Assembly: GCF_000277125.1 (NCBI RefSeq)
Contig: NC_016946.1
Span: 4,154,001-4,218,000 of the forward strand
DNA: 64,000 bases
Origin: Mycobacterium intracellulare ATCC 13950
Lineage (GTDB): Bacteria > Actinomycetota > Actinomycetes > Mycobacteriales > Mycobacteriaceae
Direction of reading: 5' to 3'
Of this stretch, positions 38,972-56,217 are shown piece after piece. The notes below the pieces were generated by a model that saw only the letters and a list, made by a program, of their open reading frames with translations, did no database searches and was not told the DNA's origin. Positions within the stretch are counted from its first letter, which is position 1. Each line of letters opens with the position of its first letter. Both the position numbers and the translations under genes were made by a program.

Positions 38972-39107
38972 GTGGGATCTCCTCCGACAACTCGCGGTAC
39001 CGATGCGACGGACGGAGGTAAAGATATGCCATCGCGTGCTTGGCGAACACGTTCCCGACTGATCATTCGCTTTGCGAACGTTCGCGCCAACGCCCCCGCC
39101 GGGCGTG

Positions 39108-39143: not shown

Positions 39144-39146
39144 ACC

Positions 39147-39223
39147 TGGTAGCGGGGACAGGATTCGAACCTGCGACCTCTGGGTTATGAGCCCAGCGAG
39201 CTACCGAGCTGCTCCACCCCGCG
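39147..39223 (-). tRNA. Initiator tRNA-fMet (CAT)
   Basis: A 77-nt tRNA including an encoded CCA. The anticodon loop CTCATAA is flanked by GGG and CCC, the three G:C pairs that mark initiator tRNA. The first base C faces T at position 72, the unpaired end typical of bacterial initiators. The T-loop reads TTCGAAT. The stem-loops fold fully. Confidence 0.97.
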
Positions 39224-39324
39224 TTGGTGAATGCCAGGTTACCGAACCGGTGTCACGGCGACCAAATCGCGCGCTCAGCGGGGTGAGCGGCCCGGCGTTC
39301 GCTGACAGGACTGCGCCGGGCGCG

Positions 39325-39753
39325 TCAGAGCGCCATCCCCATTTGCGTCAATCTGACCCGGTTCTCGTCGAACCACTCCTGTTCGCGACCAGGCTCAGGC
39401 AAAACCAATCCAGCCTCCATCCCATTTGCCGGGTCGACTTCGGTCAACGCGACGAGAAATTCGGCTTCAGACTGGCCGGTGGCACGACTCCACATCCGCG
39501 AGAATTCGCGCAGCATCGTTTGGCGGGTCGCGGCATCGCGCCCGTGGCGGATGGCGCCGAACAGGTAGGAGTGGCTCGCCTGTTTGCGGCCAACGAAGCA
39601 GTCACCCACCGGGATCTCGTGGAAAAGAACGTTGACGAATAATTCCGGTGCTCCGGTGGCGCTGGTGTGAATGGTGGTGATCTCGTCGGCGATTCGAGCC
39701 TTCGCCGACTCGCTCAGCAGTCCTGGCGGACTGTAACACTGGTAGACGGGCAT
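39325..39753 (-). CDS. Tautomerase superfamily protein, cis-CaaD-like
   Basis: A 142-residue single-chain tautomerase. After Met removal Pro1 is N-terminal (PVYQCY). His28 and the Arg pair in IRHGR match cis-3-chloroacrylic acid dehalogenase His28, Arg70 and Arg73, and the Glu in GMEAGLVLPEPG fits Glu114. The Tyr103 equivalent appears to be Leu, so it may not be a true dehalogenase. It may hydrate or isomerise an unsaturated acid. AAAGGA precedes the ATG. It follows the LLM oxidoreductase gene by 102 bp on the same strand and likely belongs to the UbiD pathway. Confidence 0.85.
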   Translation of the reverse strand: MPVYQCYSPPGLLSESAKARIADEITTIHTSATGAPELFVNVLFHEIPVGDCFVGRKQASHSYLFGAIRHGRDAATRQTMLREFSRMWSRATGQSEAEFLVALTEVDPANGMEAGLVLPEPGREQEWFDENRVRLTQMGMAL

Positions 39754-39855
39754 TTCGTGGGAGTCCTTTCGAACGAGTAGGGATTTGGCCGGCGCTATGC
39801 CGCCAAGGAAGGCGAGCAGATCAGCGACCCCATCGGGGCGACCGAACCGGCCGTG

Positions 39856-40857
39856 CTAACCACGCACGGCCGCCACGAATCTTTCGAGTTCGCATGGGAT
39901 GTCGGGTCCCGAGGGCTCGATCATGACCTCGGTGGCACCGGCCTCCGCCATCGCCGCGACGGCCCTCCCGACCGCGTCGGCCGATCCGCTCAGGGTGACC
40001 GACGGAACCGAGGCGTAGCCTCCGGCATGCCAGGCCGCCATGTCGGCCGTGTTCATCTCGACCATGGTCCCCTGGTGAATGTGTAAGTGGCGCAGGCGTT
40101 GCGGGATCCGCTCGATCACGTCCAACCACGCTGCGCCACCCGGCATCTCGCGCAACGCGTCGGCACCCTGCGTGGTGTAGACGAAATGATATGCCGCCGC
40201 CCAGGGGGCACCCACCGCCGAGCGGACCCGTTCGTCTGCCAGGCTCTCCCCTTCGTCGAGTACGGTGCCCATTGTCGCTACCACTGTGCGCGCAAAATCA
40301 CGCTGTCCGGGCACGACATTGAACATCGAGATGATCCCGTCGGCGCCGACCCGCTTGGCGACGCCTGCACCCTTGGGACCGGTTGCCGCCAGCAGCAACG
40401 GGATTCGCAGGGGCAGCACCTCCGATTGCGATGAGCTGAGCATCAATTTTATGGCCGCACCTTCCCAGTCGACCACCTCGCCGGCCAACAGCGCCTGGTA
40501 GGCACGGATATAGGCCTCCATGTACGACCATGCGATCGGGGGCTGGCCGATGGCCGCGCGGCTGGAGAATCCTGTGCCGAACGACGTCAGAATGCGTCCG
40601 GGTGCCACTCGGTGCAGTGAGACGGTCTCTGCGGCGTTGACCAACGGATGACGCTGTGTCGGAATCAGTACCGCGGGACCCAGCTCAATCGTCGTCGTCC
40701 GCTCGGCGGCGCGGTGCAAGGCCAGCCAGACGTCATCACCACCGAACGGACTGTCGTAACAGTAGGCGCGCCGATAGCCAAGTTTCTCCGCTGAGGCAAT
40801 GTGCTGAGCCGACTCGATCGACGGTGGTAACGCGATGCTTACCGCAACATCCGTCAT
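39856..40857 (-). CDS. LLM class flavin-dependent oxidoreductase
   Basis: A 333-residue luciferase-like (beta/alpha)8 protein that would use FMNH2 or F420H2. Recognisable features are the early SAEKLGYRRAYCYDSPF segment, a RHPLVNAAETVSLHRVAPGR segment, GTGFSSR, and LLLAATGPKGAGVAKRVGADGII, which binds the cofactor phosphate. F420 dependence is common in mycobacteria but not provable here. It lies 7 bp after ubiD in the same operon, so it may act on the decarboxylated product or its precursor. Confidence 0.9.
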   Translation of the reverse strand: MTDVAVSIALPPSIESAQHIASAEKLGYRRAYCYDSPFGGDDVWLALHRAAERTTTIELGPAVLIPTQRHPLVNAAETVSLHRVAPGRILTSFGTGFSSRAAIGQPPIAWSYMEAYIRAYQALLAGEVVDWEGAAIKLMLSSSQSEVLPLRIPLLLAATGPKGAGVAKRVGADGIISMFNVVPGQRDFARTVVATMGTVLDEGESLADERVRSAVGAPWAAAYHFVYTTQGADALREMPGGAAWLDVIERIPQRLRHLHIHQGTMVEMNTADMAAWHAGGYASVPSVTLSGSADAVGRAVAAMAEAGATEVMIEPSGPDIPCELERFVAAVRG

Positions 40858-40864
40858 CGCCTCT

Positions 40865-42463
40865 CTACACCTCCGGCATTCGCTTGCTGAGTTTTTGCAG
40901 CGTCAGCATTTCGCGTCCTTCGTCGTCGAGGTACGGGATGCCGATCCCGTACTCTTCCCACCGGCCGGCAATTTTGGATTCCAGCTCGGGCGATAACCGA
41001 TCGGTCGGCGGGAAGCGGCGCCCGCCCCATTCCGCGCGAGGCTCGATCTCCCAGCTACGGGTGGCGTCGATGAGCACCCGCGTCCACTGGCCGGCCCCGT
41101 ACTTGTTGGTGTCGTTCTTCTCCGGCGGGGTCGACGGATCGAGCGAGGAGCCCAAACCCGGTCCAAAGAAAGCGATGTCGCCGAGCCCCGCGTTGACCCG
41201 ATAGGACATGGCCCAATCCAGCGCGACCGGATCGTGGATGTCGATGTCCTCCTCGACGACCATCACGTTTTTGTGGAACCACACCGATCCCCCGGTGCCC
41301 CAGAGCGCCGCGGCGATCTGTTGCGCGTGGCCGCGGTACCGCTTCTGGATCTGCACCAGTGTGTTCTGGCCGTTGGTCACCTCGGTCATCCAGAGGTCGG
41401 TGATGCCGCCGATGCCAAGATCGTCGAGCACGTTCCAGGTGATCGCCGACCGTGCGAAGTTGGTGATGCTGTCCTCGTTGAACATCCCCGGCCGGATGCC
41501 CTCGAGGGTGCCGCGAAGCACCGGGTCGTTGCGGTGGGTGATGCGGGTGACCCGCAGGACCGGCGCCGGTGCCGCGCCGCCGATGAAGCCCGGATACTCG
41601 GCGAACGGACCCTCTACGACGAACGTCGAGGGGTCGGGATCGATGAAGCCCTCGACGACGATCTCCGCGGTCGCCGGCACGTGCAACGGCACAGATTCGC
41701 AGGGCACCAGGTCAACGGGTCGGCCGAGCAGCGCCCCCATCATGTCCCACTCACAGACGTTCTTGGGAAAGGGGCTGCCGGCGCAGAACGGCAGCACGTC
41801 GTGCCACCCATAGACAACCGCAACCGGCATCGGCTCTGGCTTGTATTCCTCCATATGGCCGCCCCAGCCCTGGCTGGGCACCAACAATTTGGCGATCTTG
41901 TCGCGGTCGACGATCTGGCCGCGGTAGAGACCAATGTTGTCGCGTCCGGTTACCTTGTCTTCGGTGACGACGCCGCAGAAGGTGTCGATGTAGCGGCCGC
42001 CGTCCTCACCGTGCCACTTCGGGACGGGGAGCTCCCACAAATTGATGTCGTCGCCTTCGACGATGTTCTCTTTGACCGGGCCCGAGTCGACAACGCGTGG
42101 TGGGATGGGCTTTTTGAACGCCTCTCGCAAGTGACGAACGATGGCCGAATCGCTGGTGCCTTCTGGCAGCCCGAGCATCAGTTGGACCTGGCGCCGGCTG
42201 CCCAGTGCCGACGTCAACAGCTTTGTGCACCTGGTGTTCTCATGGCCGACAATGTTTTCGAACAGCAGAGCCGGGCCGCCCAGAGACAGGTTGGCGCGGG
42301 TGATCGCACCGATTTCCTGGTCCCAGTCGACAGCGGCTCTGACCCGACGCAACTGGTCCGCCGCTTCCAGTGTTGCCAGCCAGCTACGCAGGTCGGGTCC
42401 CGCACCGGCCCCGTCCGGTTGGGTGATACTCGTCGTTTCCGGCAGGCTTGTGCCCGTGGTCAT
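40865..42463 (-). CDS. UbiD family decarboxylase
   Basis: A 532-residue prenylated-FMN-dependent (de)carboxylase. The family core is clear: IGLYRGQIVDRDKIAKLLVP region, an EIVVEGFID segment, and VEGPFAEYPGFIGG carrying the conserved Glu of the E-R-D/E catalytic set, with LRVTRITHR following. UbiD enzymes decarboxylate aromatic, heteroaromatic or alpha,beta-unsaturated acids. Adjacent ubiX would supply the cofactor. GAGGAG precedes the ATG, and 10 bp separate it from ubiX. The substrate is not known; menaquinone synthesis is unlikely because of the catabolic-looking neighbours. Confidence 0.93.
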   Translation of the reverse strand: MTTGTSLPETTSITQPDGAGAGPDLRSWLATLEAADQLRRVRAAVDWDQEIGAITRANLSLGGPALLFENIVGHENTRCTKLLTSALGSRRQVQLMLGLPEGTSDSAIVRHLREAFKKPIPPRVVDSGPVKENIVEGDDINLWELPVPKWHGEDGGRYIDTFCGVVTEDKVTGRDNIGLYRGQIVDRDKIAKLLVPSQGWGGHMEEYKPEPMPVAVVYGWHDVLPFCAGSPFPKNVCEWDMMGALLGRPVDLVPCESVPLHVPATAEIVVEGFIDPDPSTFVVEGPFAEYPGFIGGAAPAPVLRVTRITHRNDPVLRGTLEGIRPGMFNEDSITNFARSAITWNVLDDLGIGGITDLWMTEVTNGQNTLVQIQKRYRGHAQQIAAALWGTGGSVWFHKNVMVVEEDIDIHDPVALDWAMSYRVNAGLGDIAFFGPGLGSSLDPSTPPEKNDTNKYGAGQWTRVLIDATRSWEIEPRAEWGGRRFPPTDRLSPELESKIAGRWEEYGIGIPYLDDEGREMLTLQKLSKRMPEV

Positions 42464-42473
42464 TTCGGTCTCC

Positions 42474-43130
42474 TCACTCGATCGGGGCGCACAGCGGCTG
42501 GCGCAACTCCTGCTCGATCCGGGTGGCCCACCGGTCGGCCTCCGTTAGAGCTGAGTCGCCGTTTGGGTGTTGCTGATCGTCCTTCCAGCGCTTGATCAGA
42601 CTGTGTTCGATGCCGAGCTGATCAAGGACCCGGCCGACCACATAATCGGTCACTTCGTCGACCGAGGTGGGCCGCGCGTAGTACGCCACCGTCGGTGGGA
42701 AGATCACGGCTCCGGCTCGCGCCAGGTAGTGCATGTTCTCCAAGTGGATCTCACTCAACGGGGCCTCGCGCGCGACCAGGACCAGCCTGCGTCGTTCCTT
42801 GAGCGTCACGTCGGCGGCGCGCGTGATCAGGTTGTCGCTGAAGCCGATTCGGATGGCGCTCAACGTCTTCATGCTGCACGGGCAGACCACCATGCCGTCG
42901 GTGCGGAACGATCCACTGGAGATGCCGGCGGCGAGGTCGCGTGCGCTGTACGCGTGTGAGGCCAACGCCCGAACCGCCTCGACGCTGGTATCGGTCTCGA
43001 GCTTGATCGTCGCCCGCGCCCAGTCACTCAACACCAGGTGCGTCTCGACACCCAAGTGCCCGAGGGTTTCCAGTAGGCGGATGCCCAGAGCGGCACCGGT
43101 CGCTCCGGTCATGGCAATCACCAATCTCAT
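42474..43130 (-). CDS. ubiX: UbiX family flavin prenyltransferase
   Basis: A 218-residue flavin prenyltransferase that joins dimethylallyl phosphate to FMN to form prFMN for UbiD. The N-terminal MTGATGAALGIRLLETL binds the flavin phosphate, CPCSMKTLSAIRIGFSDNLITRAADV is the family core, and VLVAREAPLSEIHLENM matches the phosphate-binding loop. A perfect GGAGGAGG lies before the ATG. It lies 36 bp after the Dps gene and 10 bp before ubiD. Confidence 0.94.
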   Translation of the reverse strand: MRLVIAMTGATGAALGIRLLETLGHLGVETHLVLSDWARATIKLETDTSVEAVRALASHAYSARDLAAGISSGSFRTDGMVVCPCSMKTLSAIRIGFSDNLITRAADVTLKERRRLVLVAREAPLSEIHLENMHYLARAGAVIFPPTVAYYARPTSVDEVTDYVVGRVLDQLGIEHSLIKRWKDDQQHPNGDSALTEADRWATRIEQELRQPLCAPIE

Positions 43131-43166
43131 GACCTCCTCCTTTCACGGATCGCCGCTCGAGAACAG

Positions 43167-43670
43167 CTACGGCGTAACGTTTTCCGACTTCAGCAGCCAC
43201 GCCTCTTTCTCGAGGTCATCGATGATGGCGTGCAATAGGTCGGCGGTCGCGGGGTCAGCAGCGTCGACGTCGTCGTGCACGGCGCGGATGGTGCCGACGA
43301 CGGCGTAGATGCGGGTGGTGATCAGGTCAACGGCTTCGGCGGCGCCGATCAGACCCGGGGGGATAGCCGGAACCGTCGTCGTCGCCACCACCGTGTCCGA
43401 GCGGCCGTCCGGGACCGCGTCCAACGCGCGCAGTCGTTCGGCGATTGTGTCGCTGGCCTCGCGGGCGGTGTCCACGATGGCGTCAAGTTGCAGGTGCAGG
43501 TCGCGGAAGTTCGTGCCGACGAGGTTCCAGTGCGCCTGTTTGCCTTGCAGGTGCAGTTCGATCAGGTCGACCAGGACCCTCTGCAGGTCTTCGAACAGGC
43601 TCGCCGCGGCCCGAAAGGGCCGTACGTCGGCGGCGTTACGCCGGTTGGCGGACAGTGAGATCGTCATCAT
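43167..43670 (-). CDS. Dps family ferritin-like protein
   Basis: A 167-residue four-helix miniferritin. The conserved ferroxidase segment reads LHLQGKQAHWNLVGTNFRDLHLQLDAIVDTAREASDTIAERL (about 41-82), with the His and Asp/Glu ligands of the interfacial iron site. Dps proteins oxidise and store iron and can coat DNA, protecting from peroxide. It is the first gene of the ubiX-ubiD unit, an unusual association; protection of oxygen-sensitive prFMN chemistry or handling of peroxide from flavoenzymes is possible. GAAGGGA precedes the ATG pair. Confidence 0.92.
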   Translation of the reverse strand: MMTISLSANRRNAADVRPFRAAASLFEDLQRVLVDLIELHLQGKQAHWNLVGTNFRDLHLQLDAIVDTAREASDTIAERLRALDAVPDGRSDTVVATTTVPAIPPGLIGAAEAVDLITTRIYAVVGTIRAVHDDVDAADPATADLLHAIIDDLEKEAWLLKSENVTP

Positions 43671-44065
43671 GCTTCCCTTCAGATGGGGGCCGGGTGGCGG
43701 TACCCACGGCAATCCTTCCGTCGTGGATCCAAGTCTGCGGCGAACCGAACGGCCGTCGCATCCGCTGGTGGCTAGTCATGCGGGGTCGTCGATCTTCACG
43801 CCATAAGGGGTCCGACGGCCCATGCTCCGGAACCCTTCGGTTCACTATGCGTTGCCGAAAGGTTGTGCCCACTTATCAGACGGGACATCTTTCCCACAAT
43901 TAGCGCCATGGCCGTACAAACGCCTGGGCGCTCTGCTGCGCCGCCTTGTTCAGCCGAAGCGAGAAAGTCCCGTGCAAATCGCTGCCGTTGTGCACACGCC
44001 GCGCGCGGTGATTGCGCTCGACGCACGCACTGTCGCCAGCCTCCGGCATGTCGAAATCCCACGCG
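43671..44065. other. Intergenic region with AraC-box A
   Basis: A 395-bp stretch between the end of araC and the start of dps. It contains box A (43882-43905). I see no convincing gene here; short open frames lack start signals. Confidence 0.5.
43882..43905 (-). promoter_or_regulatory. Shared box A upstream of dps-ubiX-ubiD
   Basis: A 24-bp element, on the plus strand GGGACATCTTTCCCACA then ATTAGCG. It matches box B at 45103-45126 at 20 of 24 bases, with GGGACA, TTTCCCACA and TAGCG all identical, in the same orientation. It lies about 212 bp upstream of the dps ATG. Confidence 0.65.
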
Positions 44066-44989
44066 TCACGCGAGCAAGTCCCGGCGGTAGGCGGTCGGCG
44101 TCGTCGCGAGCCTCCTGCGCATCACCGCCGCCAAATGCTGAGAACTCGCGAACCCGCATTGGTGGGCGATATCGGTGATGCTCAGTGACGGGTTGCCCAG
44201 CAGCTCACAGGCGTGCATGAACCGACGATTCATCAGCCACCGGTGCGGCGGCTCTCCGGTGCCCTCCAGGAACAGTCCTGAAAGGCGTGTCGTCGACAAG
44301 CCCACCACCGCCGCCAGTTCGTTCAGGCCGACATCATCCGAGAGGTGCGCCTCTAGGTAGTCGATTGCGCGCCGCAGGCGCCAATCCCGATAGCCTGGAC
44401 CGCTTTTCTTCGCTAAGGACGGGGATCCCGACACACTCGAGTGCTGGCGTATAAGTCGAACAACGAGTTGTTGACCGAGAGAGTCAATCATCATCCGGGA
44501 ACACCCGTCCCGGTGAGTCATTTCGCGAACGATCTGCCGGCATATGCTCTCTGCCAAAGGGTCCCGGGAACACATTGGATCGATCAACGTGACCGACCGA
44601 GCCACGTTGGCGGCGCCGCTTTCCACCGCGAGCCTTTCCACCATCGCGTGCGGCACATACACGTGCAGATAACTAAATGGCCGCTCAGCGCTGAATACTC
44701 CTCTTGGCTGTTCGCCGGCGACCACAACGTTCATGTGGAAAGCCGGATGTTCGCGGCCCCATTTGCGGCGCCCGTCACCAAAGTACGTGTGGTGGTGATG
44801 TCCGCTCAGGGGCATGGCGATAAGGTCCGTGGTGTCGACGGCCGGACCCACCAATTCGTATGCCGATTTGTTTTCGAACCGCCAGATCGCTGCGGTAAGA
44901 ACACCGCCGGAGCCTGTGATGCGTTGTCCGGGCTTGAAGCCCAGGCACTCAGAAACATCTTCGGGCGTGACGAATGCGGGCCCAGTCAT
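44066..44989 (-). CDS. AraC family regulator
   Basis: A 307-residue activator-type regulator. The N-terminal half (about 45-150) is a cupin-like effector domain with a His-rich stretch (SGHHHHTYFGDG). The C-terminal pair of helix-turn-helix motifs (about 205-305) reads LNELAAVVGLSTTRLSGLF and ITDIAHQCGFASSQHLAAVMRR. It sits between two divergent flavoenzyme operons, each preceded by the same 24-bp box, and is the likely regulator of both. It has its own promoter region containing box B. Confidence 0.92.
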   Translation of the reverse strand: MTGPAFVTPEDVSECLGFKPGQRITGSGGVLTAAIWRFENKSAYELVGPAVDTTDLIAMPLSGHHHHTYFGDGRRKWGREHPAFHMNVVVAGEQPRGVFSAERPFSYLHVYVPHAMVERLAVESGAANVARSVTLIDPMCSRDPLAESICRQIVREMTHRDGCSRMMIDSLGQQLVVRLIRQHSSVSGSPSLAKKSGPGYRDWRLRRAIDYLEAHLSDDVGLNELAAVVGLSTTRLSGLFLEGTGEPPHRWLMNRRFMHACELLGNPSLSITDIAHQCGFASSQHLAAVMRRRLATTPTAYRRDLLA

Positions 44990-45102
44990 GCTTGGACGCC
45001 CTGCCCAGGCGCCGTGTGGACGCCGCGCGCGGACCGGTCGCGGTCATCCGAGATCACACAGACAAGTCTCGACTCGGTGTCGGGCCTTCAGCCACCGATG
45101 AT

Positions 45103-45126
45103 GGGACACGTTTCCCACAGATAGCG
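45103..45126. promoter_or_regulatory. Shared box B between araC and the rightward operon
   Basis: A 24-bp element, GGGACACGTTTCCCACA then GATAGCG, in the 273-bp gap between araC (start 44989) and the first rightward gene (45263). The first 14 bases, GGGACACGTTTCCC, form a near-perfect palindrome. It matches box A at 20 of 24 positions. Confidence 0.65.
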
Positions 45127-45225
45127 ACATCGTCCGGCTACGCACGACATTCCCGAAATCGGTGCGTGTCTCGTGCACAAGGTACGCGCCGCAGACACGC
45201 CAGTGACCCACCTGTCGCGGTAGAC

Positions 45226-45237
45226 ACGTCCGGACGT
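45226..45237. promoter_or_regulatory. 12-bp palindrome ACGTCCGGACGT
   Basis: A perfect palindrome 25 bp upstream of the first rightward start codon and 14 bp before its ribosome binding site. It could be a repressor site or part of the promoter. Confidence 0.3.
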
Positions 45238-45262
45238 TTCGTTTTACACGCGGAGGAACACG

Positions 45263-45562
45263 ATGGATGTCAATCGGTTGGACGCCCAAGCGGCATCCAC
45301 GGTCACGGCGGAGAAATCGGCCAAGTCTCAAGCGAGACCGAACGCTCGATTTCCGGAGCACCGCCCCCTGCCCCTGCCGTCCGTGACGAGCATTGCAGGG
45401 CAAGCATGCTTTCACAGCTTCGTCGCGCTATCGCTGGTGTTCGCAAGCGCCATGTTGTGGGCGGCAACATTCGGCGAGCTTCCCATGTTCGTCAAGCCTC
45501 CCACACATTGCGTTCAATACGACTTCGGCCCGGCGGGCTCGGCTGACCGCCTCAGTCGATGA
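45263..45562 (+). CDS. Small hypothetical membrane protein, first gene of flavoenzyme operon
   Basis: A 99-residue protein with a polar N-terminus and one hydrophobic segment (about 52-71, FHSFVALSLVFASAMLWAAT). CGGAGGAA stands seven bases before the ATG, a strong ribosome binding site. Its stop overlaps the next start as ATGA. These two signals make a real gene likely although I know no homologue. It might anchor or escort a redox enzyme at the membrane. Confidence 0.6.
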   Translation: MDVNRLDAQAASTVTAEKSAKSQARPNARFPEHRPLPLPSVTSIAGQACFHSFVALSLVFASAMLWAATFGELPMFVKPPTHCVQYDFGPAGSADRLSR

Positions 45563-45756
45563 AGATGGGCATGAACACACACCGAAGCACGAGAACGAGA
45601 TTCGGCTCAGAGCGCTATCGCTTTGTGATCCCGGATTATTCGCGGTCGACCGAATTGGACGACTCGCTTGGCCGGGATGTCGTTTTGCGACAACTTGTCC
45701 TGCACGGCCTCGCCACGGTCTTGCTGATGATGGCCGCCTTCGCAATCAGCTGTTAG
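45559..45756 (+). CDS. Small hypothetical tail-anchored protein
   Basis: A 65-residue ORF coupled by ATGA to the preceding gene. It has a charged N-terminal part with an Arg/Tyr-rich patch and a C-terminal hydrophobic helix (about 46-64, LVLHGLATVLLMMAAFAIS), the shape of a tail-anchored membrane peptide. It ends 48 bp before the FAD monooxygenase gene. No family is recognised. Confidence 0.55.
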   Translation: MKMGMNTHRSTRTRFGSERYRFVIPDYSRSTELDDSLGRDVVLRQLVLHGLATVLLMMAAFAISC

Positions 45757-45804
45757 TCCTCGCGCGTCGTCCGCCGACAAAAACGGATCAGAAGGAGACT
45801 CAGT

Positions 45805-47211
45805 GTGCCTGAATTCGGCGAAACCGCAGTCGTTCTGGGGGGAAGCATCGCCGGCCTGATGGCCGCCCGTGTTCTGGCTGACTACTACACCACGGTGACC
45901 GTGGTGGAACGAGACGTTCTGCCCGAACGCCCAGTGGCCCGCCGCGGAGTGCCCCATGGCCCCAGTCCGCACATTCCCCAAGTTCGCGCCACGCAGACCA
46001 TGGAGGAGCTGTTCCCCGGGCTCCTCGATGAGTTGGTGGCGATGGGAGCGCGAGTGTGGAAGGACGGTGACCTATCGCGAATCTGGATGTCGTTCGCTGG
46101 GCACAAATTTCTGCAATCCGGCACCATCCCGGATCCCGAGACGGTGATCAAGTACTACGTCAATAGGCCCCTACTCGAGTGGTGCATCGGACGCAGAGCA
46201 CGCCACATTCCCAATATCGAGTTCCTCGTTGGCCACGATGCGGTGAGACTGACTTCGACTCCGGCCCGTAACCGGATTACGGGTGTCGTGACCGCACAGC
46301 GTGACTCAGGTGCGGAAAGAATCTTGGCCGCCGATCTGGTGGTCGACGCCACAGGACGCGGTTCGCGGACCCCGGTATTCCTCGACGATCTCGGCTACCG
46401 TCGCCCCCACGAAGATGAGCTGATGGTGCATGCCGCCTACGCGAGCACGTTGTTGCACGTGCCACCTGGAACGTTGCGCGAATACATGGCTGTCAGTGGC
46501 GCATTGCCCGGCCGGCCAACGGGATTCGCAATGTTCGCCGGCGAAAACGACACCTACATGGTTGGAATGCAGATGATGGCGGGAGGCCAGCCGCCCTCCG
46601 ACCACGACTCGCTGCTGGCCCGCTTGGCAGAAGTCGCGCCCGCGCATGTCGTTGAAGCCGTGCGTCGCGCCGAACCACTCGGACCGCTGCGTCAGCATCG
46701 CTTTCCAGCGAATCGGTGGCGCCGATACGACAAGTTGACGGCAATGCCTCAGGGTTTGATCGTCATCGGCGACGCCATGTGCAGCTTCAATCCAGTTTAC
46801 GGGCAAGGAATGTCGATCGCCGCTGTCGAGGCGCTCATCCTGCGCACGTGCCTTGAGCGCGGCGACCGCGACCTTCAGCGGCGGTATTTCCGAGCGGCCG
46901 CCAGGGAGATCCGGACCGCTTGGCAGGCCGCCGTCGGGGCAGACCTAACGCTTCCTCAAATCCAGGGGCCGCGGCCTTTGTCCATGCGAATAACAAACGC
47001 GTACCTCCGTCGGGTTATGGCAGCCGCGGAAACCGACCCCGTCGTCGTCCAGCAATTCATGCGGCTGATTGGCATGGTCGACCGTCCGTCGCGCCTGCTG
47101 CGCCCCTCGATGGTGTTGCGTGTCATGACGAAGTCGAGGCGGGCGACCAAGGACAAAACGCACGTCAGCGCCCAGCCCTGCAAGGAGGAACAGGTCAATG
47201 GACATCTATGA
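45805..47211 (+). CDS. FAD-dependent monooxygenase (PHBH fold)
   Basis: A 468-residue group A flavoprotein hydroxylase. The FAD-binding VLGGSIAGLMAARVLADYY (9-27), the DATGRGSRTP motif in the middle, and the VIGDAMCSFNPVYGQGMS GD motif (about 325-342) are intact. Such enzymes hydroxylate activated aromatic rings or related carbonyl compounds with NAD(P)H and O2. The GTG start follows AGAAGGAG. It overlaps the nitroreductase gene by 14 bp. The substrate is unknown, but an aromatic compound would fit the nearby UbiD decarboxylase. Confidence 0.9.
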   Translation: MPEFGETAVVLGGSIAGLMAARVLADYYTTVTVVERDVLPERPVARRGVPHGPSPHIPQVRATQTMEELFPGLLDELVAMGARVWKDGDLSRIWMSFAGHKFLQSGTIPDPETVIKYYVNRPLLEWCIGRRARHIPNIEFLVGHDAVRLTSTPARNRITGVVTAQRDSGAERILAADLVVDATGRGSRTPVFLDDLGYRRPHEDELMVHAAYASTLLHVPPGTLREYMAVSGALPGRPTGFAMFAGENDTYMVGMQMMAGGQPPSDHDSLLARLAEVAPAHVVEAVRRAEPLGPLRQHRFPANRWRRYDKLTAMPQGLIVIGDAMCSFNPVYGQGMSIAAVEALILRTCLERGDRDLQRRYFRAAAREIRTAWQAAVGADLTLPQIQGPRPLSMRITNAYLRRVMAAAETDPVVVQQFMRLIGMVDRPSRLLRPSMVLRVMTKSRRATKDKTHVSAQPCKEEQVNGHL

Positions 47212-47917
47212 AGCGCTCTACACGACCAGAACGATGCGCCGCATGCGGCCGGACCCGATACCTCTGGGCACGCAGGCCCGCATACTTGATGCGGCGATCC
47301 GTGCGCCCAACGGCGGCAACACCCAGCGCTGGCATTTCCTCGCGGTCGACGATCCCGCGCTCAAGCGCTCGCTGGGTGAGTTGTACCGCCGCGGCCGCGA
47401 GAAAGAGCACGAAGAATTCAGGACAGGGACAATGGCCGCGCCCGCGCCCGGCCTGGATCCCACCGCGCACGCCGACACGTTGCGTCGCGTCATCCGCTCG
47501 GGCGACTACCTGGCCGATCATTTCGACGAGACACCGCTATTGCTCTTTGTTTTCGCGATCGACGACCACGGCGGTGCCAACATCTTTCCCGCCATCTGGA
47601 GCGCGCTGCTGGCCGCCCGCGCCGAAGGCGTCGGCGGTGCCATGACAACTTTGCTGCGCTATTTCCCAGATGCGGTGAATGAGCTCTTGGGGGTGCCGAT
47701 CGAGCAGGGGTGGACGATGTCGGCCATGGTGGCGTTCGGGTATCCACTCGGCAGGTGGGACATTGCCGCCAATCGCCGCCCGGTGCACGAAGTCTCATCT
47801 CGTAACCGTTGGGGCGCTTCTTTCGGCACCGACGTGCCGCGACCACTGTGGCCCGGTAGCGACGAACCAATCCTGGGCAATCGGTTGCGGCAGGTGAATC
47901 CCGACTGCCGATGTTGA
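47198..47917 (+). CDS. Nitroreductase family protein (copy 1)
   Basis: A 239-residue FMN-dependent nitroreductase-fold protein. N-terminal ALYTTRTMRRMRPDPI and IRAPNGGNTQRWHFLAV bind the FMN phosphate and ring, and SAMVAFGYPLGRW is the C-terminal family motif. Reactions in this family include reduction of enones, nitro groups and dehalogenation. The start overlaps the monooxygenase end by 14 bp, with CAAGGAGGAA upstream, so coupling is firm. It is closely related to the protein at 54748-55446. Confidence 0.92.
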   Translation: MDIYEALYTTRTMRRMRPDPIPLGTQARILDAAIRAPNGGNTQRWHFLAVDDPALKRSLGELYRRGREKEHEEFRTGTMAAPAPGLDPTAHADTLRRVIRSGDYLADHFDETPLLLFVFAIDDHGGANIFPAIWSALLAARAEGVGGAMTTLLRYFPDAVNELLGVPIEQGWTMSAMVAFGYPLGRWDIAANRRPVHEVSSRNRWGASFGTDVPRPLWPGSDEPILGNRLRQVNPDCRC

Positions 47918-47961
47918 GAGCCAAGGATTCCATTCCACATCGATCAAATCGGGGAGATTGC

Positions 47962-48123
47962 GTGAGCACTTCAAACAAGGGCATTTTCGCTCGACGCCAC
48001 GACGACGCGCGTGGACGCCCTGTGAACGGGCATCAGCGGCTGCTCGGCCAAACCGGGTTCCGGATGGTCCGGAAAGCCGACACTCCAACGGATTTCAGCG
48101 TCGTCGAAGCGCGCGTCAGATGA
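47962..48123 (+). CDS. 53-residue hypothetical ORF coupled to the GMC oxidoreductase
   Basis: A small ORF with a GTG start preceded by GGGGAG at good spacing. Its TGA overlaps the ATG of the GMC oxidoreductase (ATGA). The peptide is basic and without a membrane helix (GIFARRHDDARGRPV, GFRMVRKADTPTDF). It could be a small partner subunit or only a translational coupler. Confidence 0.5.
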   Translation: MSTSNKGIFARRHDDARGRPVNGHQRLLGQTGFRMVRKADTPTDFSVVEARVR

Positions 48124-49688
48124 CTTCGACACCAATGCCGGCACCCGAGGTTGCCGCGCGCTACGACTTCGTGATCTGTGGGTCAGGGTCTTCTGGATCG
48201 GTCGTCGCCGGTCGGCTTTCGGAGAATCCGGACGTTACGGTGCTTTTGCTCGAGGCCGGTGAAACCGATGATGTTTCGGCAGTCCACGATCCCACGCAGT
48301 GGCCGCTGAACTTGGGTAGCGAGCGTGACTGGTGTTTCGTTTCGCAGCCGAGCGCCCATCTCAAGGGCAGATCGGTGCTGCTGTCGATGGGGAAGGTGCT
48401 CGGCGGGGGGTCGAGCATCAACGTGATGGTGTGGGCTCGGGGACATCGAAGCGACTGGGACTACTTCGCAACCCAGGCGGGTGACGAAGCCTGGGGCTAT
48501 GAATCGGTGCTTGACATCTACCGTCGCATTGAGGATTGGCACGGGCCGGCAGTCTCCGCCCGCGGCACCGGAGGCCCCATGTCCGTGACGTCCCCGCCCG
48601 ACCCCAATCCGATCGCTCCGGCCATCGTCGAGGCTGCTCGCTCGCTGGGGATCCCGAGCTATCCGAGCAACAACGGCGCCATGATGGACCGCGGCGGCGG
48701 CGCAGCGCTCTTGGACGTGACATTGCGAAACGGGCTGCGGCAGTCCGTGTATCGCTCCTACGTTCATCCGCACCTGCACCGCCCGAACATGACAGTCCTC
48801 ACCGGTGCGACGGTGACTCGGTTGGTCGTCGGCCGAAACCGGGCTACGGCGGTCGAGTTCTCGCACAACGATCGGACGCACCAGGTCGTCGCAGCACACG
48901 AGGTAGTTGTCTCGCTTGGGGCGATCAACACGCCAAAAGTCCTCATGCACTCCGGTATCGGCGACGCTGACGAGCTGCGCCGCTTCGGAATTCCCGTCGT
49001 GGCGCATCTTCCGGGCGTTGGCAGAAACTATCAGAGCCATCCACGGATCGACTGCGTGTGGGAATTCCGCGAGCCACTCGAGCCACGGAACAACGCCGGG
49101 GGCGCCGGGGTGTTCTGGAAGAGCGACCAGAACCTGGAGGCACCCGACCTGCAGATCTGCTTCGGCGAAGTTCCGTTGTCCAGCAGCGCGAACGCCGCCG
49201 CTTATGGCCTGCCGGAGCACGGGTGGACGGCGTGCGCCGGGGTGCTGCGCCCGAAAAGCTCTGGCCGAGTCCGGCTTACCGGAGCAAGGCCGTGCGACCC
49301 AGTGTCGGTCGAAGACAACATGCTGGCACACCACGACGACCTCGCGGCCGCCATCGCCTGCGTGGATCTCGCCCGTGAGATCGGAAACTCGACAGTACTT
49401 CGGCGTTTCAACAAGCGCGAGGTCATGCCGGGCGATCTCACACGTGCCGAGCTCGAACAGTTCATCCGCTATGGGGCCGAATGCTATTTCCACCAAAGCT
49501 GCACGGCGAAGATGGGACGCGACAGCATGTCTGTGGTCGACTCGAACCTCAAAGTTCATGGCATAGAAGGGCTTCGGATTGCAGATGCCTCGATCATGCC
49601 TCGGATCACCACCGGCAACACCATGGCGCCCTGTGTCGTCATCGGTGAGCGCGCCAGCGACATCCTCAAAACGGCGCACGGACTCTGA
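48120..49688 (+). CDS. GMC family oxidoreductase
   Basis: A 522-residue FAD-dependent choline-dehydrogenase-like enzyme. The FAD fold GSGSSGSVVAGRLSEN (21-36), VLGGGSSINVMVWARG signature 1, and the C-terminal catalytic pair His458 (YFHQSCTAKMG) and Asn500 (TTGNTMAPC) are visible. GMC enzymes oxidise alcohols to aldehydes; mycobacterial members include a mycofactocin-linked dehydrogenase, but no mft genes are near. The ATG at 48120 is supported by overlap with the 53-residue ORF; 24 bp separate it from the convergent LuxR gene. Confidence 0.93.
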   Translation: MTSTPMPAPEVAARYDFVICGSGSSGSVVAGRLSENPDVTVLLLEAGETDDVSAVHDPTQWPLNLGSERDWCFVSQPSAHLKGRSVLLSMGKVLGGGSSINVMVWARGHRSDWDYFATQAGDEAWGYESVLDIYRRIEDWHGPAVSARGTGGPMSVTSPPDPNPIAPAIVEAARSLGIPSYPSNNGAMMDRGGGAALLDVTLRNGLRQSVYRSYVHPHLHRPNMTVLTGATVTRLVVGRNRATAVEFSHNDRTHQVVAAHEVVVSLGAINTPKVLMHSGIGDADELRRFGIPVVAHLPGVGRNYQSHPRIDCVWEFREPLEPRNNAGGAGVFWKSDQNLEAPDLQICFGEVPLSSSANAAAYGLPEHGWTACAGVLRPKSSGRVRLTGARPCDPVSVEDNMLAHHDDLAAAIACVDLAREIGNSTVLRRFNKREVMPGDLTRAELEQFIRYGAECYFHQSCTAKMGRDSMSVVDSNLKVHGIEGLRIADASIMPRITTGNTMAPCVVIGERASDILKTAHGL

Positions 49689-49712
49689 CGCCGGCGCTTG
49701 GACATCGGTTTG

Positions 49713-52532
49713 TCACCCTGAACCTGGACGATCTGTCGGCAAGACCCGGTCAAGTTGACTGCGCGAGCTGATATCGAGCTTGGTGAACACCTTGCGAAGG
49801 TGGTACTGGACGGTTCTGGGGCTGATGAACAACCGGGCGCCGATCTCCGGATTCGACAAGCCGTCCCGAGCCAGCCGCGCGACCTGAGTTTCCTGCGCCG
49901 TCAGCTTTTCACCGTCGACGCCGGCAGTGCGCTTTCGTGCGGTCTCACCGGTGGCCTGCAGCTCACGTCGGGCCCGTTCAGCGAATGCCTCCATCCCCAT
50001 CGCGTCGAGCATTTCGTGCGCGATACGCAGCTGCGTCCGAGCCTCCGTGCGCCGGCGCCCCCGCCGCAGCCATTCACCGTAGAGCAGATGCGTGCGGGCG
50101 AGCTCGGCGCGGACACGACTGTGCCCATAGTGTGCGATCGACTCTCGGTACAGCAGCTCGGCCGCCTCACCGTCGGCCAGCAGCGCACGGCAGCGCGTCT
50201 CCACACCGAGCGCCCATCCGGTGCGGGAAGCGCTGGTCATCTCGGTGATCCACTCCATCGCTTGGGTTGCCTCTTCGCGCATTCCGCTTCGCACGGCGGC
50301 CTCGACGAACTCTGCCGCGGCCCAGTTGGCCACCCCCGGGTAACGAAGGCTGGGATACTCCTGTTGCTCGAGCCCGCGGCGGGCGGCCGCCAGTGCTTCC
50401 GCGTAGTTGCCGAGGCCGTTATGAAGCAGGGCTTTCGTCCACTCGGCCACGGCGGTCGAGATGCCTTCTCCCCGTTGAGGGGCTTCTGCAACGGTCCGCG
50501 AGATGAGCGCCTCCGCGTCTGCTTGATGGCCGCGGATCGAGGCCAGGGTCATGGCGGCGTACGGCGCGAGGTTGCTTCCCGTGGCCTCGGTCACCGTGTG
50601 CTGCTCTTCGACCAGCACGCTCACAGCCGTCAGATCGCCAACGAACGTCAGCAACATCGCCCGTGTGCTCAGGGCGAGCGGAAGCGCGTTCATCGCGCCC
50701 GTCTTGCGTGCCAACGTGAGGTAACGTTGCGAGAGCCTGTCCCAGTGTGCGTCATCCCAAAGGTGCAGTGCCGCTTGGCTAGTCAGCCACATCCAGCGAA
50801 GCTCGTCATCAGCCGACATACCGGTTCCCGTGGCGTCCAGCGCCGCACGCAGGTATGGCACCGCGGCCGAATACCCCTCGATGAAATTCGCCGCCAGCCC
50901 GTTAAGCACGAGATCGGGAGCGCGTGGCAGCTCCGTCGATCGGGGGGCCGCGGTCGCAGCCCTTGCTACCTCGAGTACGTGGCCCCCCGGACTGGCGAGA
51001 CGGCCTGCGAACTCAGCGGCGGAAATCGCGTCCAGGTACGTCTCCCGGGCCAGTCTGGCGTCAATCGGCTCGAGCCGCCGCGCGGCCCGAAGCAGCAGGA
51101 GCGGAGCATCGCCGCCCCGGTTCGTGGCGTATGCCAACTGGGCACGAATGAGGTCCGCCCGAGCATGCTGCAGTTCGCTGAGCGGTCCGCGCTCGGCCAT
51201 GGCAAGCAGATCCAGCGTCGAGTCGAACGCGCCGGCGTCGGCTTTCGATGCCGCGGCAACCAGAGCGCGCTCGACGCGAAGGGCCGGATCGAGGGTCAAC
51301 ATCGTCGCCCGCTCGTGAAACGCGGCCGCGGCCGCCATGCCGCCACGGGCCCGCGCCCGCCCTGCCGAACGCTCCAACTCGGCGGCGACGTCCTCGTCCG
51401 GACCTGGCGCAGCATGTGCGCGATGCCATGCGCGCCGGTCAGGATCGGAGTCCGGGTCGGTCACCTCGGCCAGCGCGGCGTGTACCTGCTGTCTGATGTG
51501 CAACGGGGCCGCCCGGTAGGCGGCTGAGCGTGCCAGCGGATGGCGGAAACGCACCCGCGCACCGAATTCCGCCAAGCCCGCCTCGATCGCCGGGGTGGCG
51601 GCCTGCGCACCGATCTCCAAACGTGCGGCGGCGCGCCACAGCAGCCCCGGGTCGCCGAGCGGCTCCGCCGCCGCCAACACCAACAATCGACGGCTCTGGT
51701 CGGGCAAGGCCTCCACCCCGCGGCGGAAACTTTGCTCCATCGCCGCTGACAGCCGCGGCGCCCCTGGTAACCCGAACCCCCCGGCCAGTTCTCGCCCCGC
51801 GAGACTACGGGGCAATTCGAGCAGCGCCAGTGGATTGCCGCGAGTCTCGGCGATGATCTGGTCGCGCACCCGCGCATCCAGCGGCGTGGCCAAAACCGTC
51901 TCCAATAAAGCTCGCGCGTCCGTTTCCGTGAGCCCGTTGACCTCCAGCGTCGGGAGCTTTTTCAGCTCGGGGTTCACAACCCGCGTCGTGAGGACCAAAC
52001 CCACAGATTCAGCGGCCAACCGCCGGGCGACAAATACGAGCGTCTGCGACGAGGCCTGGTCGAGCCACTGCAGATCGTCGACCAAACAAACGAGCGGCTC
52101 GACCTCAGCCATGCTGGAGAACATGTTCAACACCGCCAACCCTACGAGAAGGCGGTCCGGTGCGGGACCTGTCGTTTGACCCAATGCCGTGCTCAAAGCG
52201 TCGCGTTGCGGCACCGGCAGAAAGTCGAGACGATCGAGCATCGCCGCGCACAACTGGTGCACCGCGGCGTAGGCCAGCTCCATCTCCGACTCGACCCCGC
52301 TGGCACGGATGACGCGACAGCCGGCGGCCCGTTCACCGACGTAGTCCAGCAAGGCCGTCTTGCCGACACCCGGCTCTCCATGAAGTACCAGAACACGACT
52401 CTCACCGGCGCGCACGCGGGTGAGAAGCTGTTCCAGCGCAACACATTCCGCGTGCCGGCCTATCAGGGCACCACCATTCCGTGGCGGCGACACCGGGTCC
52501 ACGGTGTCGAGAATAGTCGCGTGGTCAGCCAC
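49713..52532 (-). CDS. LAL-type LuxR family ATPase regulator
   Basis: A 939-residue large ATP-binding regulator. Walker A is GEPGVGKT (52-59), Walker B LVCLVDDLQW (about 145-154), then a long helical, TPR-like middle region, and a C-terminal LuxR helix-turn-helix (about 870-930; LTAQETQVARLARDGLSNPEIGARLFISPRTVQYHL). LAL proteins integrate a ligand bound by the helical region with ATP hydrolysis to activate transcription. The GTG start is weakly supported. It is convergent with the GMC gene and divergent from the first GlxA-type gene. Confidence 0.93.
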   Translation of the reverse strand: MADHATILDTVDPVSPPRNGGALIGRHAECVALEQLLTRVRAGESRVLVLHGEPGVGKTALLDYVGERAAGCRVIRASGVESEMELAYAAVHQLCAAMLDRLDFLPVPQRDALSTALGQTTGPAPDRLLVGLAVLNMFSSMAEVEPLVCLVDDLQWLDQASSQTLVFVARRLAAESVGLVLTTRVVNPELKKLPTLEVNGLTETDARALLETVLATPLDARVRDQIIAETRGNPLALLELPRSLAGRELAGGFGLPGAPRLSAAMEQSFRRGVEALPDQSRRLLVLAAAEPLGDPGLLWRAAARLEIGAQAATPAIEAGLAEFGARVRFRHPLARSAAYRAAPLHIRQQVHAALAEVTDPDSDPDRRAWHRAHAAPGPDEDVAAELERSAGRARARGGMAAAAAFHERATMLTLDPALRVERALVAAASKADAGAFDSTLDLLAMAERGPLSELQHARADLIRAQLAYATNRGGDAPLLLLRAARRLEPIDARLARETYLDAISAAEFAGRLASPGGHVLEVARAATAAPRSTELPRAPDLVLNGLAANFIEGYSAAVPYLRAALDATGTGMSADDELRWMWLTSQAALHLWDDAHWDRLSQRYLTLARKTGAMNALPLALSTRAMLLTFVGDLTAVSVLVEEQHTVTEATGSNLAPYAAMTLASIRGHQADAEALISRTVAEAPQRGEGISTAVAEWTKALLHNGLGNYAEALAAARRGLEQQEYPSLRYPGVANWAAAEFVEAAVRSGMREEATQAMEWITEMTSASRTGWALGVETRCRALLADGEAAELLYRESIAHYGHSRVRAELARTHLLYGEWLRRGRRRTEARTQLRIAHEMLDAMGMEAFAERARRELQATGETARKRTAGVDGEKLTAQETQVARLARDGLSNPEIGARLFISPRTVQYHLRKVFTKLDISSRSQLDRVLPTDRPGSG

Positions 52533-52777
52533 CCGCTGGCCAAAGGATGCTGTTCGGGCGCCAGGCGTCGTTCACGATGATGTCACGCGCTGACAAGAGC
52601 TTGAGCCCCCAGGTTCCGCCCCCGGTGAATTTCTTTGTCGCAGTGTGAGTCCAACGTCGCGCGCGCCGCCACTTATCCGGCAGAGTTCCTCAGGTGATCG
52701 CCGTTCGTGTCGCCGATCCACACGTTGTGACACCCTCCGGCTTGTACTCGTCGTCGCCGGCGCGACACGATGGCGGT

Positions 52778-54648: not shown

Positions 54649-54747
54649 GTGGAAAGCTTGACTCGCCCATCGGGTGATCGCATCCGCCGATGGCTAGTTC
54701 TCGTCCCTCTGGACTTCCCGGACGCCGCGTTGGCCCGCACGGCCGAT

Positions 54748-56116: not shown

Positions 56117-56217
56117 GGTCTTGTCTCCTTCTGCGGTGACGGTTGTGCCCAGTGTGCGACGGTCCGGTCGATCCGACGCCGCTCGTTTGAGCCGTCAACT
56201 CCTCAAAAAGCGACACA

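What the first reader, a model, noticed from the sequence alone, without database searches (positions are those of the whole stretch)
39325..49688. AraC-centred, flavoenzyme-rich locus with UbiX/UbiD
Two divergent units flank an AraC gene. Leftward: Dps, UbiX, UbiD, LLM oxidoreductase, cis-CaaD-like tautomerase. Rightward: two tiny membrane ORFs, a PHBH-fold monooxygenase, a nitroreductase, a 53-residue ORF, and a GMC oxidoreductase. Five different flavin enzyme classes, one using prenylated FMN, would act on one substrate. I know of no described mycobacterial pathway with this set. Decarboxylation, ring hydroxylation, alcohol oxidation and tautomerisation suggest breakdown or tailoring of an aromatic or unsaturated acid.
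Basis: partly seen in the sequence, partly recalled or inferred. Interest (0 to 1): 0.85.

Follow-up and report, generated by a model that had tools for sequence, protein, structure and literature searches.

The report
Mobile mycobacterial UbiD gene island
A roughly 15 kb block of foreign-looking DNA beside a tRNA gene in a mycobacterium carries a decarboxylase and several other flavin enzymes; the same gene kinds recur, reshuffled, in related species, often with the same likely control switch, which suggests one still unknown pathway for breaking down or altering an acidic compound.

Summary
The genes exist and the set is not chance, but the finding is re-drawn. (1) The unit is a ~15.4 kb island (about 39.29-54.75 kb), lower in GC3 than its flanks, between tRNA-Met and a resident NTR2-HD-DJ-1/AraC module; in seven UbiD-less relatives that interval is 582-607 bp. 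(2) Near UbiX-UbiD in 36 other mycobacterial loci the same families recur in shuffled order (LLM 9, FMO 10, nitroreductase 13, GMC 6, AraC 9, tautomerase 8, DJ-1/AraC 26, HD 25). (3) New: an operator-like motif, two GACATC half-sites 21 bp apart, flanks araC, has no third match in the 5.4 Mb genome at the stringency used, and recurs upstream of ubiX, araC, HD/DJ-1-araC and other modules: probably one regulon. (4) Corrections: the 53-residue ORF is a methyltransferase remnant; the two tiny ORFs have no homologue in 36 loci; Dps is not core. (5) In 11 of 36 loci a (hydroxyamino)benzene-mutase-family protein sits by UbiX, never together with LLM; its predicted fold best matches styrene oxide isomerase, with the haem His and two Asn conserved. 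Substrate unknown; an aromatic acid, possibly N-substituted, is the best guess.

The parts
39147..39223 (-). tRNA-Met (CAT), left border of the island
   Evidence: ARAGORN; this tRNA region aligns in 8 relatives (L092, L105, L108-L112, L114); a tRNA-Met was found in 14 of 20 related loci scanned
39292..54770 (.). inserted island, about 15.4 kb; the interval is 582-607 bp in 7 UbiD-less relatives (L105, L108-L112, L114)
   Evidence: blastn of the window against the same site; GC3 0.69-0.85 inside, 0.85-0.94 outside
39325..39753 (-). Tautomerase_3 (cis-CaaD-like) protein; homologue in 8 of 36 other UbiD loci
39754..39855 (-). possible 16-residue remnant of an SDR gene that follows LLM in L003/L004 (weak)
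   Evidence: E 9e-6 in a small search
39856..40857 (-). LLM-class oxidoreductase, best PDB match 5,10-methylene-H4MPT reductase (F420 type); 9 of 36 loci
40865..42463 (-). UbiD-family decarboxylase (prFMN-dependent by family), the only one in the genome
42474..43130 (-). UbiX flavin prenyltransferase; 35 of 36 loci beside UbiD
43167..43670 (-). Dps/ferritin-like protein; accessory (3 of 36 loci)
43879..43909 (+). operator-like site 1, upstream of the Dps-UbiX-UbiD-LLM-tautomerase unit (226 bp from the Dps start)
44066..44989 (-). AraC-family regulator (C-terminal HTH_18); 9 of 36 loci
45100..45130 (+). operator-like site 2, 81% identical to site 1, about 110 bp upstream of the araC start and 688 bp upstream of the FMO start
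45805..47211 (+). FAD monooxygenase, nearest PDB relatives MonCI and Lsd18/LasC epoxidases; 10 of 36 loci
47198..47917 (+). nitroreductase-fold protein NTR1 (73% to resident NTR2)
47962..48123 (+). C-terminal remnant of an O-methyltransferase gene (family f39, intact in L003, L004, L017)
48120..49688 (+). GMC oxidoreductase (choline dehydrogenase/alcohol oxidase type); 6 of 36 loci; start chosen by eye
49713..52532 (-). 939-residue LuxR-type HTH protein with a P-loop-like stretch (by eye); 10 of 36 loci
52694..53749 (+). DJ-1/PfpI-AraC regulator 1 (FtrA-like)
53740..54648 (-). SDR; 5 of 36 loci
54748..55446 (-). resident nitroreductase-fold protein NTR2, outside the island; match at E 1e-70 in 67 of 297 genomes
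55466..56116 (-). resident HD-domain protein
   Evidence: family f1; HD domain in its homologue L064:1044-1694
56183..56222 (+). weaker operator-like site (18.1 bits) in the HD / DJ-1-AraC2 gap
56218..57198 (+). resident DJ-1/PfpI-AraC regulator 2
   Evidence: family membership by BLAST

Best explanation
This is a horizontally acquired, modular metabolic island at a tRNA-Met hotspot, held together by a shared AraC-type operator. Shown by computation: the insertion relative to UbiD-less relatives, the co-occurring gene families, and operator-like sites beside the UbiX-UbiD, HabM, AraC/ALDH and HD/DJ-1-AraC modules. Inferred: AraC and/or the DJ-1/AraC proteins bind these sites and switch the modules on with an aromatic (or otherwise conjugated) acid or a metabolite of it; UbiX makes prenyl-FMN; UbiD decarboxylates the acid without oxidation; the LLM enzyme and the MonCI-like FAD monooxygenase oxidise the product; NTR1, GMC, SDR and the tautomerase do reductive, alcohol-oxidising and isomerising steps; Dps protects against oxidants. 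In a second lineage a (hydroxyamino)benzene-mutase-family membrane protein takes the place of LLM, which hints at an N-substituted aromatic acid. Likelihoods: one regulon on an acquired island 0.8; acid decarboxylation as its core step 0.7; aromatic acid 0.55; nitro- or hydroxylamino-aromatic acid 0.25.
For: Insertion: window 39292 and 54770 lie 588 bp apart in L108 (its GPx and f25 proteins are 98% identical to the window's) and the interval is 582-607 bp in L105, L109-L112 and L114, all from genomes without a UbiD match; GC3 drop. Co-occurrence: (36 loci), counts with the query genome included: FMO 10/27 against 3/270, HabM 10/27 against 2/270, NTR2 20/27 against 47/270, each p below 1e-8. 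Operator: 31-nt repeat; a pattern made from it has 2 matches in the window, 0 in 100 shuffles; a broader pattern has only these 2 in 5.4 Mb at up to 3 mismatches, reversed-pattern control 0; 58 sites of 18 bits or more in 37 loci, 55 intergenic where 14.8% of the sequence is intergenic, 19 in loci that gave no training site (several of these loci are near-duplicates of each other), against 1 in 3.8 Mb shuffled; 21 of 26 UbiD-positive and 16 of 52 UbiD-negative genomes of a chosen 78 have a site, reversed-pattern control 0 in all 78. Half-site repeat best at offset 21, the spacing known for AraC half-sites (recalled). UbiD: all three domains; TIGR00148 above cut-off; scores higher with 7pda, 6h6x (HmfF, label recalled) and phenolic acid decarboxylase 7ae4 than with Fdc1.
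Against: No substrate or expression data. Apart from UbiX and UbiD no enzyme is constant. Six of 37 loci (L016, L017, L055-L057, L067) show no site at 12 bits and L018 none at 18. Of 47 sites in UbiD-positive genomes 31 lie within 20 kb of UbiD, so 16 do not (6 of these lie within 5 kb of NTR2), and 18 sites lie in UbiD-negative genomes. Control loci (232 kb) gave one site of 25 bits, in L094. Site 2 is far (688 bp) from FMO. The resident NTR2 is common without UbiD (47 of 270 genomes), so its nearness to UbiD partly reflects the shared hotspot. No integrase turned up among the island genes classified; none was searched for specially.
Confidence: 0.65

Rival explanations
1. Partial reductive (Bamberger-type) route for a nitro- or hydroxylamino-aromatic acid (a special case of the best explanation): NTR makes an aryl hydroxylamine, the HabM mutase rearranges it to an ortho-aminophenol, UbiD removes the carboxylate, oxygenases act on the product. 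The window carries a derivative in which LLM stands in place of HabM.
For: HabM's homologues are named hydrogenase or (hydroxyamino)benzene mutase by their sources, and it is 40% identical over 132 residues, without gaps, to a pCNB protein close to a nitroreductase; it sits directly upstream of UbiX in 10 of the 12 genomes (of 297) with a close copy. The known Onb route pairs a nitroreductase with such a mutase on 2-nitrobenzoate (PMC5817917, passages). In 3 genomes with two NTR copies the second copy lies by UbiD, all three LLM-type.
Against: NTR is not of the CnbA type (32% over 47 residues); NTR2 is a resident of the hotspot, so NTR-HabM nearness is not independent; no ring-cleavage dioxygenase among the families annotated (single-locus genes were not annotated); HabM is absent from the window island.
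Confidence: 0.25
2. Side-chain route: UbiD turns a cinnamic-type acid into a terminal alkene, the MonCI-like monooxygenase epoxidises it, an isomerase of the styrene oxide isomerase fold (HabM) makes an aldehyde, ALDH oxidises it.
For: FMO nearest to the epoxidases MonCI and Lsd18; HabM model best matches styrene oxide isomerase; the ALDH of L064 scores 432 and 422 bits with the two StyD models.
Against: UbiD scores lower with Fdc1 than with arylic-acid enzymes; ALDH scores higher with betaine-aldehyde dehydrogenase (437 bits) and all these are below cut-off; the offset of catalytic Tyr103 holds Thr in HabM; ALDH in only 4 of 36 loci and not among the island genes of the window.
Confidence: 0.15
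3. The genes are unrelated passengers collected at a tRNA hotspot and do not act together.
For: Gene order and content vary greatly; the hotspot also carries other genes in UbiD-less genomes; remnants show decay.
Against: The shared operator and the association of the same subfamilies with UbiD, also with other flanking genes in Mycolicibacter loci.
Confidence: 0.15
4. A biosynthetic or tailoring cluster (UbiD, epoxidase-like FMO, GMC, methyltransferases) for a small secondary metabolite.
For: Methyltransferase families (TIGR00027 type; O-methyltransferase f39) occur among the neighbours; no ring-cleavage enzyme among the families annotated.
Against: No scaffold-forming gene (polyketide, peptide or terpene synthase) among the families annotated; AraC-type control is common in substrate-induced catabolism (recalled).
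Confidence: 0.15

Closest known systems
Vdc / Bag-Fev hydroxyarylic acid decarboxylase operons (VdcBCD, BagMN/FevKL)
   Same: UbiX and UbiD homologues; strong profile matches (VdcC 248 bits, VdcB 271 bits)
   Different: Both below the NCBIfam cut-offs (650 and 290); VdcD was not searched for; extra oxidoreductases and operator
cnb / onb nitroarene clusters (Comamonas pCNB; Cupriavidus ST-14, PMC5817917 passages)
   Same: A nitroreductase and a PF26512-family mutase close together, as in 8 of the 11 HabM loci
   Different: Nitroreductase of another subfamily; UbiXD and MonCI-like FMO present; no ring-cleavage dioxygenase among families annotated; mutase absent from the window island
Styrene side-chain pathway (StyAB, SOI/StyC, StyD)
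   Same: Epoxidase-like flavoenzyme, isomerase-fold membrane protein and aldehyde dehydrogenase in some relatives
   Different: Sequence families differ; Tyr103 not kept; no isomerase or ALDH gene identified in the window island
MonCI / Lsd18 polyether epoxidases
   Same: Closest solved relatives of the FMO (E 1e-52 and 4e-50)
   Different: No polyketide genes among those annotated here; related proteins (E 1e-60 or better) in 243 of 297 genomes
AraC-type regulation by paired direct half-sites about 21 bp apart (recalled for AraC)
   Same: GACATC repeated at offset 21, beside AraC and DJ-1/AraC genes
   Different: Binding not tested; sequence not traced to a described regulon

Membership tests
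UbiD/UbiX prFMN-dependent decarboxylase system | UbiD with N-terminal, Rift-related and C-terminal domains | tested here: met
   PF20695, PF01977, PF20696 all above cut-off
UbiD/UbiX prFMN-dependent decarboxylase system | UbiX flavin prenyltransferase present and linked | tested here: met
   TIGR00421 269 bits over cut-off 109; found beside UbiD in 35 of 36 other loci
UbiD/UbiX prFMN-dependent decarboxylase system | catalytic Arg and Glu pair (E-R-E, positions recalled from Fdc1) | tested here: inconclusive
   the YR and EGPFxEYPG stretches align with solved relatives, but equivalence was judged by eye from recall
UbiD/UbiX prFMN-dependent decarboxylase system | decarboxylase activity | not testable with these tools
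   none
Vdc hydroxyarylic acid decarboxylase | NCBIfam cut-offs of VdcB and VdcC | tested here: not met
   270.8 of 290 and 248.4 of 650 bits
Nitroarene partial reductive pathway (cnb/onb type), window locus | hydroxylaminoarene mutase in the cluster | tested here: not met
   no HabM hit in the window stretch searched; the genome's one match at E 1e-8 is 36% identical at G000:C1:4460340, about 250 kb from the island
Nitroarene partial reductive pathway (cnb/onb type), window locus | nitroreductase of the CnbA type | tested here: not met
   32% over 47 residues to the pCNB nitroreductase
Styrene oxide isomerase family, for HabM of the relatives | overall fold | tested here: inconclusive
Styrene oxide isomerase family, for HabM of the relatives | haem-ligating His (H58) and network residues N64, N99 | tested here: met
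   same spacing (+6, +41); in the 240 proteins listed by two searches His 238/238 non-gap, Asn 239/240, Asn 237/240; residue roles from PMC11374702 passages; spatial equivalence not checked
Styrene oxide isomerase family, for HabM of the relatives | D95 and catalytic Y103 | tested here: not met
   Gly or Ala and (238 of 240) Thr at these offsets
Integrative element at a tRNA gene | insertion next to a tRNA against short sites in relatives | tested here: met
   but on the 5' side of the tRNA, unusual for classical elements (recalled)
Integrative element at a tRNA gene | integrase gene | tested here: inconclusive
   none among the island genes classified by family searches; no dedicated integrase search

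The most novel reading that the evidence does not exclude
A mobile, operator-tagged modular pathway of mycobacteria in which prFMN decarboxylation is coupled either to an F420- or flavin-type LLM enzyme or to a (hydroxyamino)benzene mutase, and in which these mutases are haem-b Lewis-acid enzymes of the styrene oxide isomerase fold: the Bamberger-type and Meinwald rearrangements would then be run by one membrane fold with one haem site.
Probability: 0.25. Interest if true: 0.82.

Novelty: new variant of a known kind. Interest (0 to 1): 0.62.

Why it matters
It turns a list of flavoenzymes into a testable regulon: a 31-bp site, candidate regulators and a defined set of operons shared by a group of mycobacteria. 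It offers a route to the substrate of an uncharacterised UbiD subfamily that also has members of 60-69% identity in other bacterial groups (source names such as Streptomyces, Alphaproteobacteria, Chloroflexi), and it gives a concrete haem-site hypothesis for (hydroxyamino)benzene mutases; the one search of held papers that paired mutase, styrene oxide isomerase and hydroxylamin- gave no paper.

Tried and rejected

Broken FMO in the HabM lineage: suspected from stop counts (8 loci) shows stops only at aligned residues 444 (L063) and 455 (L105), at the C-terminus, so rejected.

LLM and HabM as functional alternatives: never in one locus (0 of 36), but each follows UbiD lineages (HabM one change with weak support 71/26, LLM four changes on the tree), so the exclusion is confounded by descent.

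Promoter and terminator scan: no sigma-70-like site (0 against 1.9 in shuffles) and terminators at chance (7 against 10.1).

UbiD relatives on plasmids at E 1e-60: only two distant hits (33-34%), no help for substrate. LLM relatives on Rhodococcus and Pseudonocardia plasmids (37-46%) were not followed.

Alignment A1: its last four rows came from the wrong strand; A2 and A3 replaced it. In VIA-align, cytochrome oxidase subunits stand level with or above the isomerase, so the fold match rests on Foldseek rank, similar length and residue spacing together.

Hand-made gene caller: starts are rough and some genes were merged or truncated (tautomerase/UbiX joined into one family, AraC shortened); counts in the report come from tblastn with identity cut-offs that I chose. 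The intergenic shares depend on this caller; three sites 'inside' genes look like miscalled starts. L068 (split UbiD) was also left out of the tree. The weight matrix was trained on sites found by similarity to the window's two, so training loci (20) are circular; 19 of 58 sites are in other loci, among them near-duplicate pairs such as L003/L004 and L019/L054.

Papers: PMC11374702, PMC12502698, PMC5817917 and PMC6600141 were seen as passages only; others as search listings. The library holds open-licence papers only, so 'not described' rests; one search listed 20 of 97 papers.


Full report
What is in the sequence. The window is 64 kb of a 5.40 Mb one-contig genome; the UbiD scan of named genomes returned mycobacteria and one acidobacterial bin. 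UbiD has all three UbiD domains and gives the only PF01977 match in the genome. The monooxygenase is nearest to MonCI and Lsd18/LasC, the LLM protein to F420-type methylene-tetrahydromethanopterin reductase, the nitroreductase-fold protein to NADH oxidase and, weakly, BluB and iodotyrosine deiodinase, and the GMC protein to choline dehydrogenase, choline oxidase and other alcohol oxidases.

Corrections. The two tiny ORFs before the monooxygenase have no homologue in 36 other UbiD loci. The 53-residue ORF matches the C-terminal 38 or so residues of an O-methyltransferase whose intact homologues stand next to NTR in L003 and L004 and between FMO and UbiX in L017; it is a remnant. A 16-residue match to the SDR that follows LLM in L003 and L004 lies right after LLM here; this is weak. 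Dps is accessory (3 of 36 loci).

It is an inserted island. Genes from the tautomerase to the SDR have GC3 of 0.69-0.85; the flanking genes have 0.90-0.94, NTR2 0.85. A tRNA-Met gene stands at 39147-39223. In L108, whose GPx and f25 proteins are 98% identical to the window's and whose genome has no UbiD match, window positions 39292 and 54770 are 588 bp apart; in L105, L109-L112 and L114 the same interval is 582-607 bp. L092 aligns at the tRNA but lacks the NTR2 part, so it was not counted. So about 15.4 kb was gained, or lost in those relatives; the GC3 drop favours gain. A tRNA-Met was found in 14 of 20 related loci scanned, and the site holds other genes in UbiD-less genomes.

The gene set recurs, reshuffled. 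A scan of genome contigs gave 21 loci. A search of 297 genomes of the genus gave 32 with a match: 27, the window included, with this UbiD (70% identity or more) and 5 with a 34% one. A draw of 251 genomes across the family gave 3, the window included, all of one genus. Over 36 loci other than the window: UbiX 35, DJ-1/AraC 26, HD 25, NTR 13, HabM 11, FMO 10, LuxR 10, LLM 9, AraC 9, LCM methyltransferase 9, tautomerase 8, alpha/beta hydrolase 8, lipase-like hydrolase 7, GMC 6, SDR 5, ALDH 4, Dps 3. Order and strand differ. Close LLM copies (79% or more) occur in 6 of 297 genomes, all UbiD-positive; close FMO copies in 10 of 27 UbiD-positive and 3 of 270 other genomes; close HabM in 10 of 27 and 2 of 270; NTR2 in 20 of 27 and 47 of 270 (each count includes the genome the query came from). 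FMO relatives in the wide sense are in 243 of 297 genomes, and NTR2 is common without UbiD.

A shared operator. A 31-nt direct repeat, 81% identical, lies on either side of araC: 43879-43909 upstream of Dps and 45100-45130 upstream of araC. A pattern made from the two copies matched only these places in the window at up to 3 mismatches, none in 100 shuffles. A broader pattern matched only these two places in the whole genome at up to 3 mismatches, with a reversed-pattern control of 0. A weight matrix from 25 sites in 20 loci found 58 sites of 18 bits or more in the 37 loci with the window; 55 are intergenic although 14.8% of the 36 other loci is intergenic; 19 lie in loci that supplied no training site, some of them near-duplicates; 3.8 Mb of shuffled sequence gave 1, and 232 kb of control loci gave 1, in an FMO locus without UbiD. 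Sites precede ubiX (L002, L007, L008, L010-L012, L014, L021, L053), HabM (L059, L062-L064), the HD / DJ-1-AraC gap (L019, L054, L058, L059, L062-L066, L068 and, weakly, the window), araC with ALDH or hydrolase (L058, L060, L062-L064) and others. Six loci have none at 12 bits, and L018 none at 18. Over 78 genomes that I chose, 21 of 26 UbiD-positive and 16 of 52 negative ones have at least one site; of 47 sites in positive genomes 31 lie within 20 kb of UbiD and 6 more within 5 kb of NTR2; of 18 in negative genomes 5 lie by NTR2; the reversed control was 0 throughout. The motif contains GACATC twice, 21 columns apart, the best of offsets 8 to 27, as expected for an AraC-family dimer (recalled). 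The most economical reading is a regulon of AraC and DJ-1/AraC proteins whose modules recombine but keep the operator. Caveat: site 2 is about 110 bp from araC but 688 bp from FMO, so control of the right arm is an inference.

Chemistry. UbiX and UbiD imply prenyl-FMN-dependent decarboxylation, by family. UbiD scores higher with 7pda, 6h6x (HmfF, label recalled) and a phenolic acid decarboxylase than with Fdc1, and it passes the general TIGR00148 model but not VdcC. The rest of the route is inferred from fold classes.

The alternative lineage. In 11 of 36 loci a membrane protein of about 142-178 residues (HabM) lies upstream of UbiX; LLM is never in the same locus, though both follow UbiD lineages. 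Its homologues are called hydrogenase or (hydroxyamino)benzene mutase, and it is 40% identical over 132 residues to a protein close to a nitroreductase on plasmid pCNB. Two AlphaFold models (mean pLDDT 81.9 and 91.2) both have styrene oxide isomerase as Foldseek's first hit with probability 1.00 (TM 0.72 and 0.67 by query); E-values are only about 0.01, and VIA-align ties it with or places it below cytochrome oxidase subunits. The isomerase binds haem b through H58 and uses N64, D95, N99 and Y103 (PMC11374702, passages). In the 240 proteins listed by two searches (of 1036 and 263 hits) a His, an Asn six residues on and an Asn 41 residues on are nearly invariant, with Thr at the Y103 offset and mostly Gly at the D95 offset. 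I therefore propose, as a hypothesis, that these mutases use the same haem site.

Verdict. A real, recurrent, horizontally moved and probably co-regulated metabolic island of a known general kind, with an uncharacterised enzyme combination and operator. Substrate unknown. Searches of the held papers found no description of such a mycobacterial cluster among the listings seen.

Noticed in passing
G000:C1:4460340-4460729 (L102), outside the window: The window's genome has one distant HabM homologue (36%) about 250 kb from the island; 59 of 297 genomes, this one included, have only such distant copies.
   Followed up: partly
L068 (G356:C32:27189-28707): UbiD appears as two overlapping pieces, so the frame seems broken in this genome; only described.
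   Followed up: no
L020 (Acidobacteriaceae MAG contig): A contig filed under an Acidobacteriaceae bin encodes a UbiD 90% identical to the window's; probably a mis-binned contig.
   Followed up: no
window 38192-39147 and the same interval in L108-L113: The other side of the tRNA-Met gene, towards GPx, also varies in length between relatives, from none to several kb, so the hotspot is two-sided.
   Followed up: partly
L009, L014, L021, L069: A roughly 600-residue repetitive protein (f30, no Pfam match) stands divergent from araC and shares the operator gap in L009, L014 and L021.
   Followed up: no
G355, G450, G461, G469, G482 (L050-L052): Five genomes carry another, distant UbiD type (34% identity), two of them with an in-frame TGA in the match.
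   Followed up: no
window 47198-47917 and 54748-55446: Two nitroreductase-fold paralogues 73% identical; the 3 of 297 genomes with both copies at the threshold used are LLM-type UbiD carriers.
   Followed up: yes
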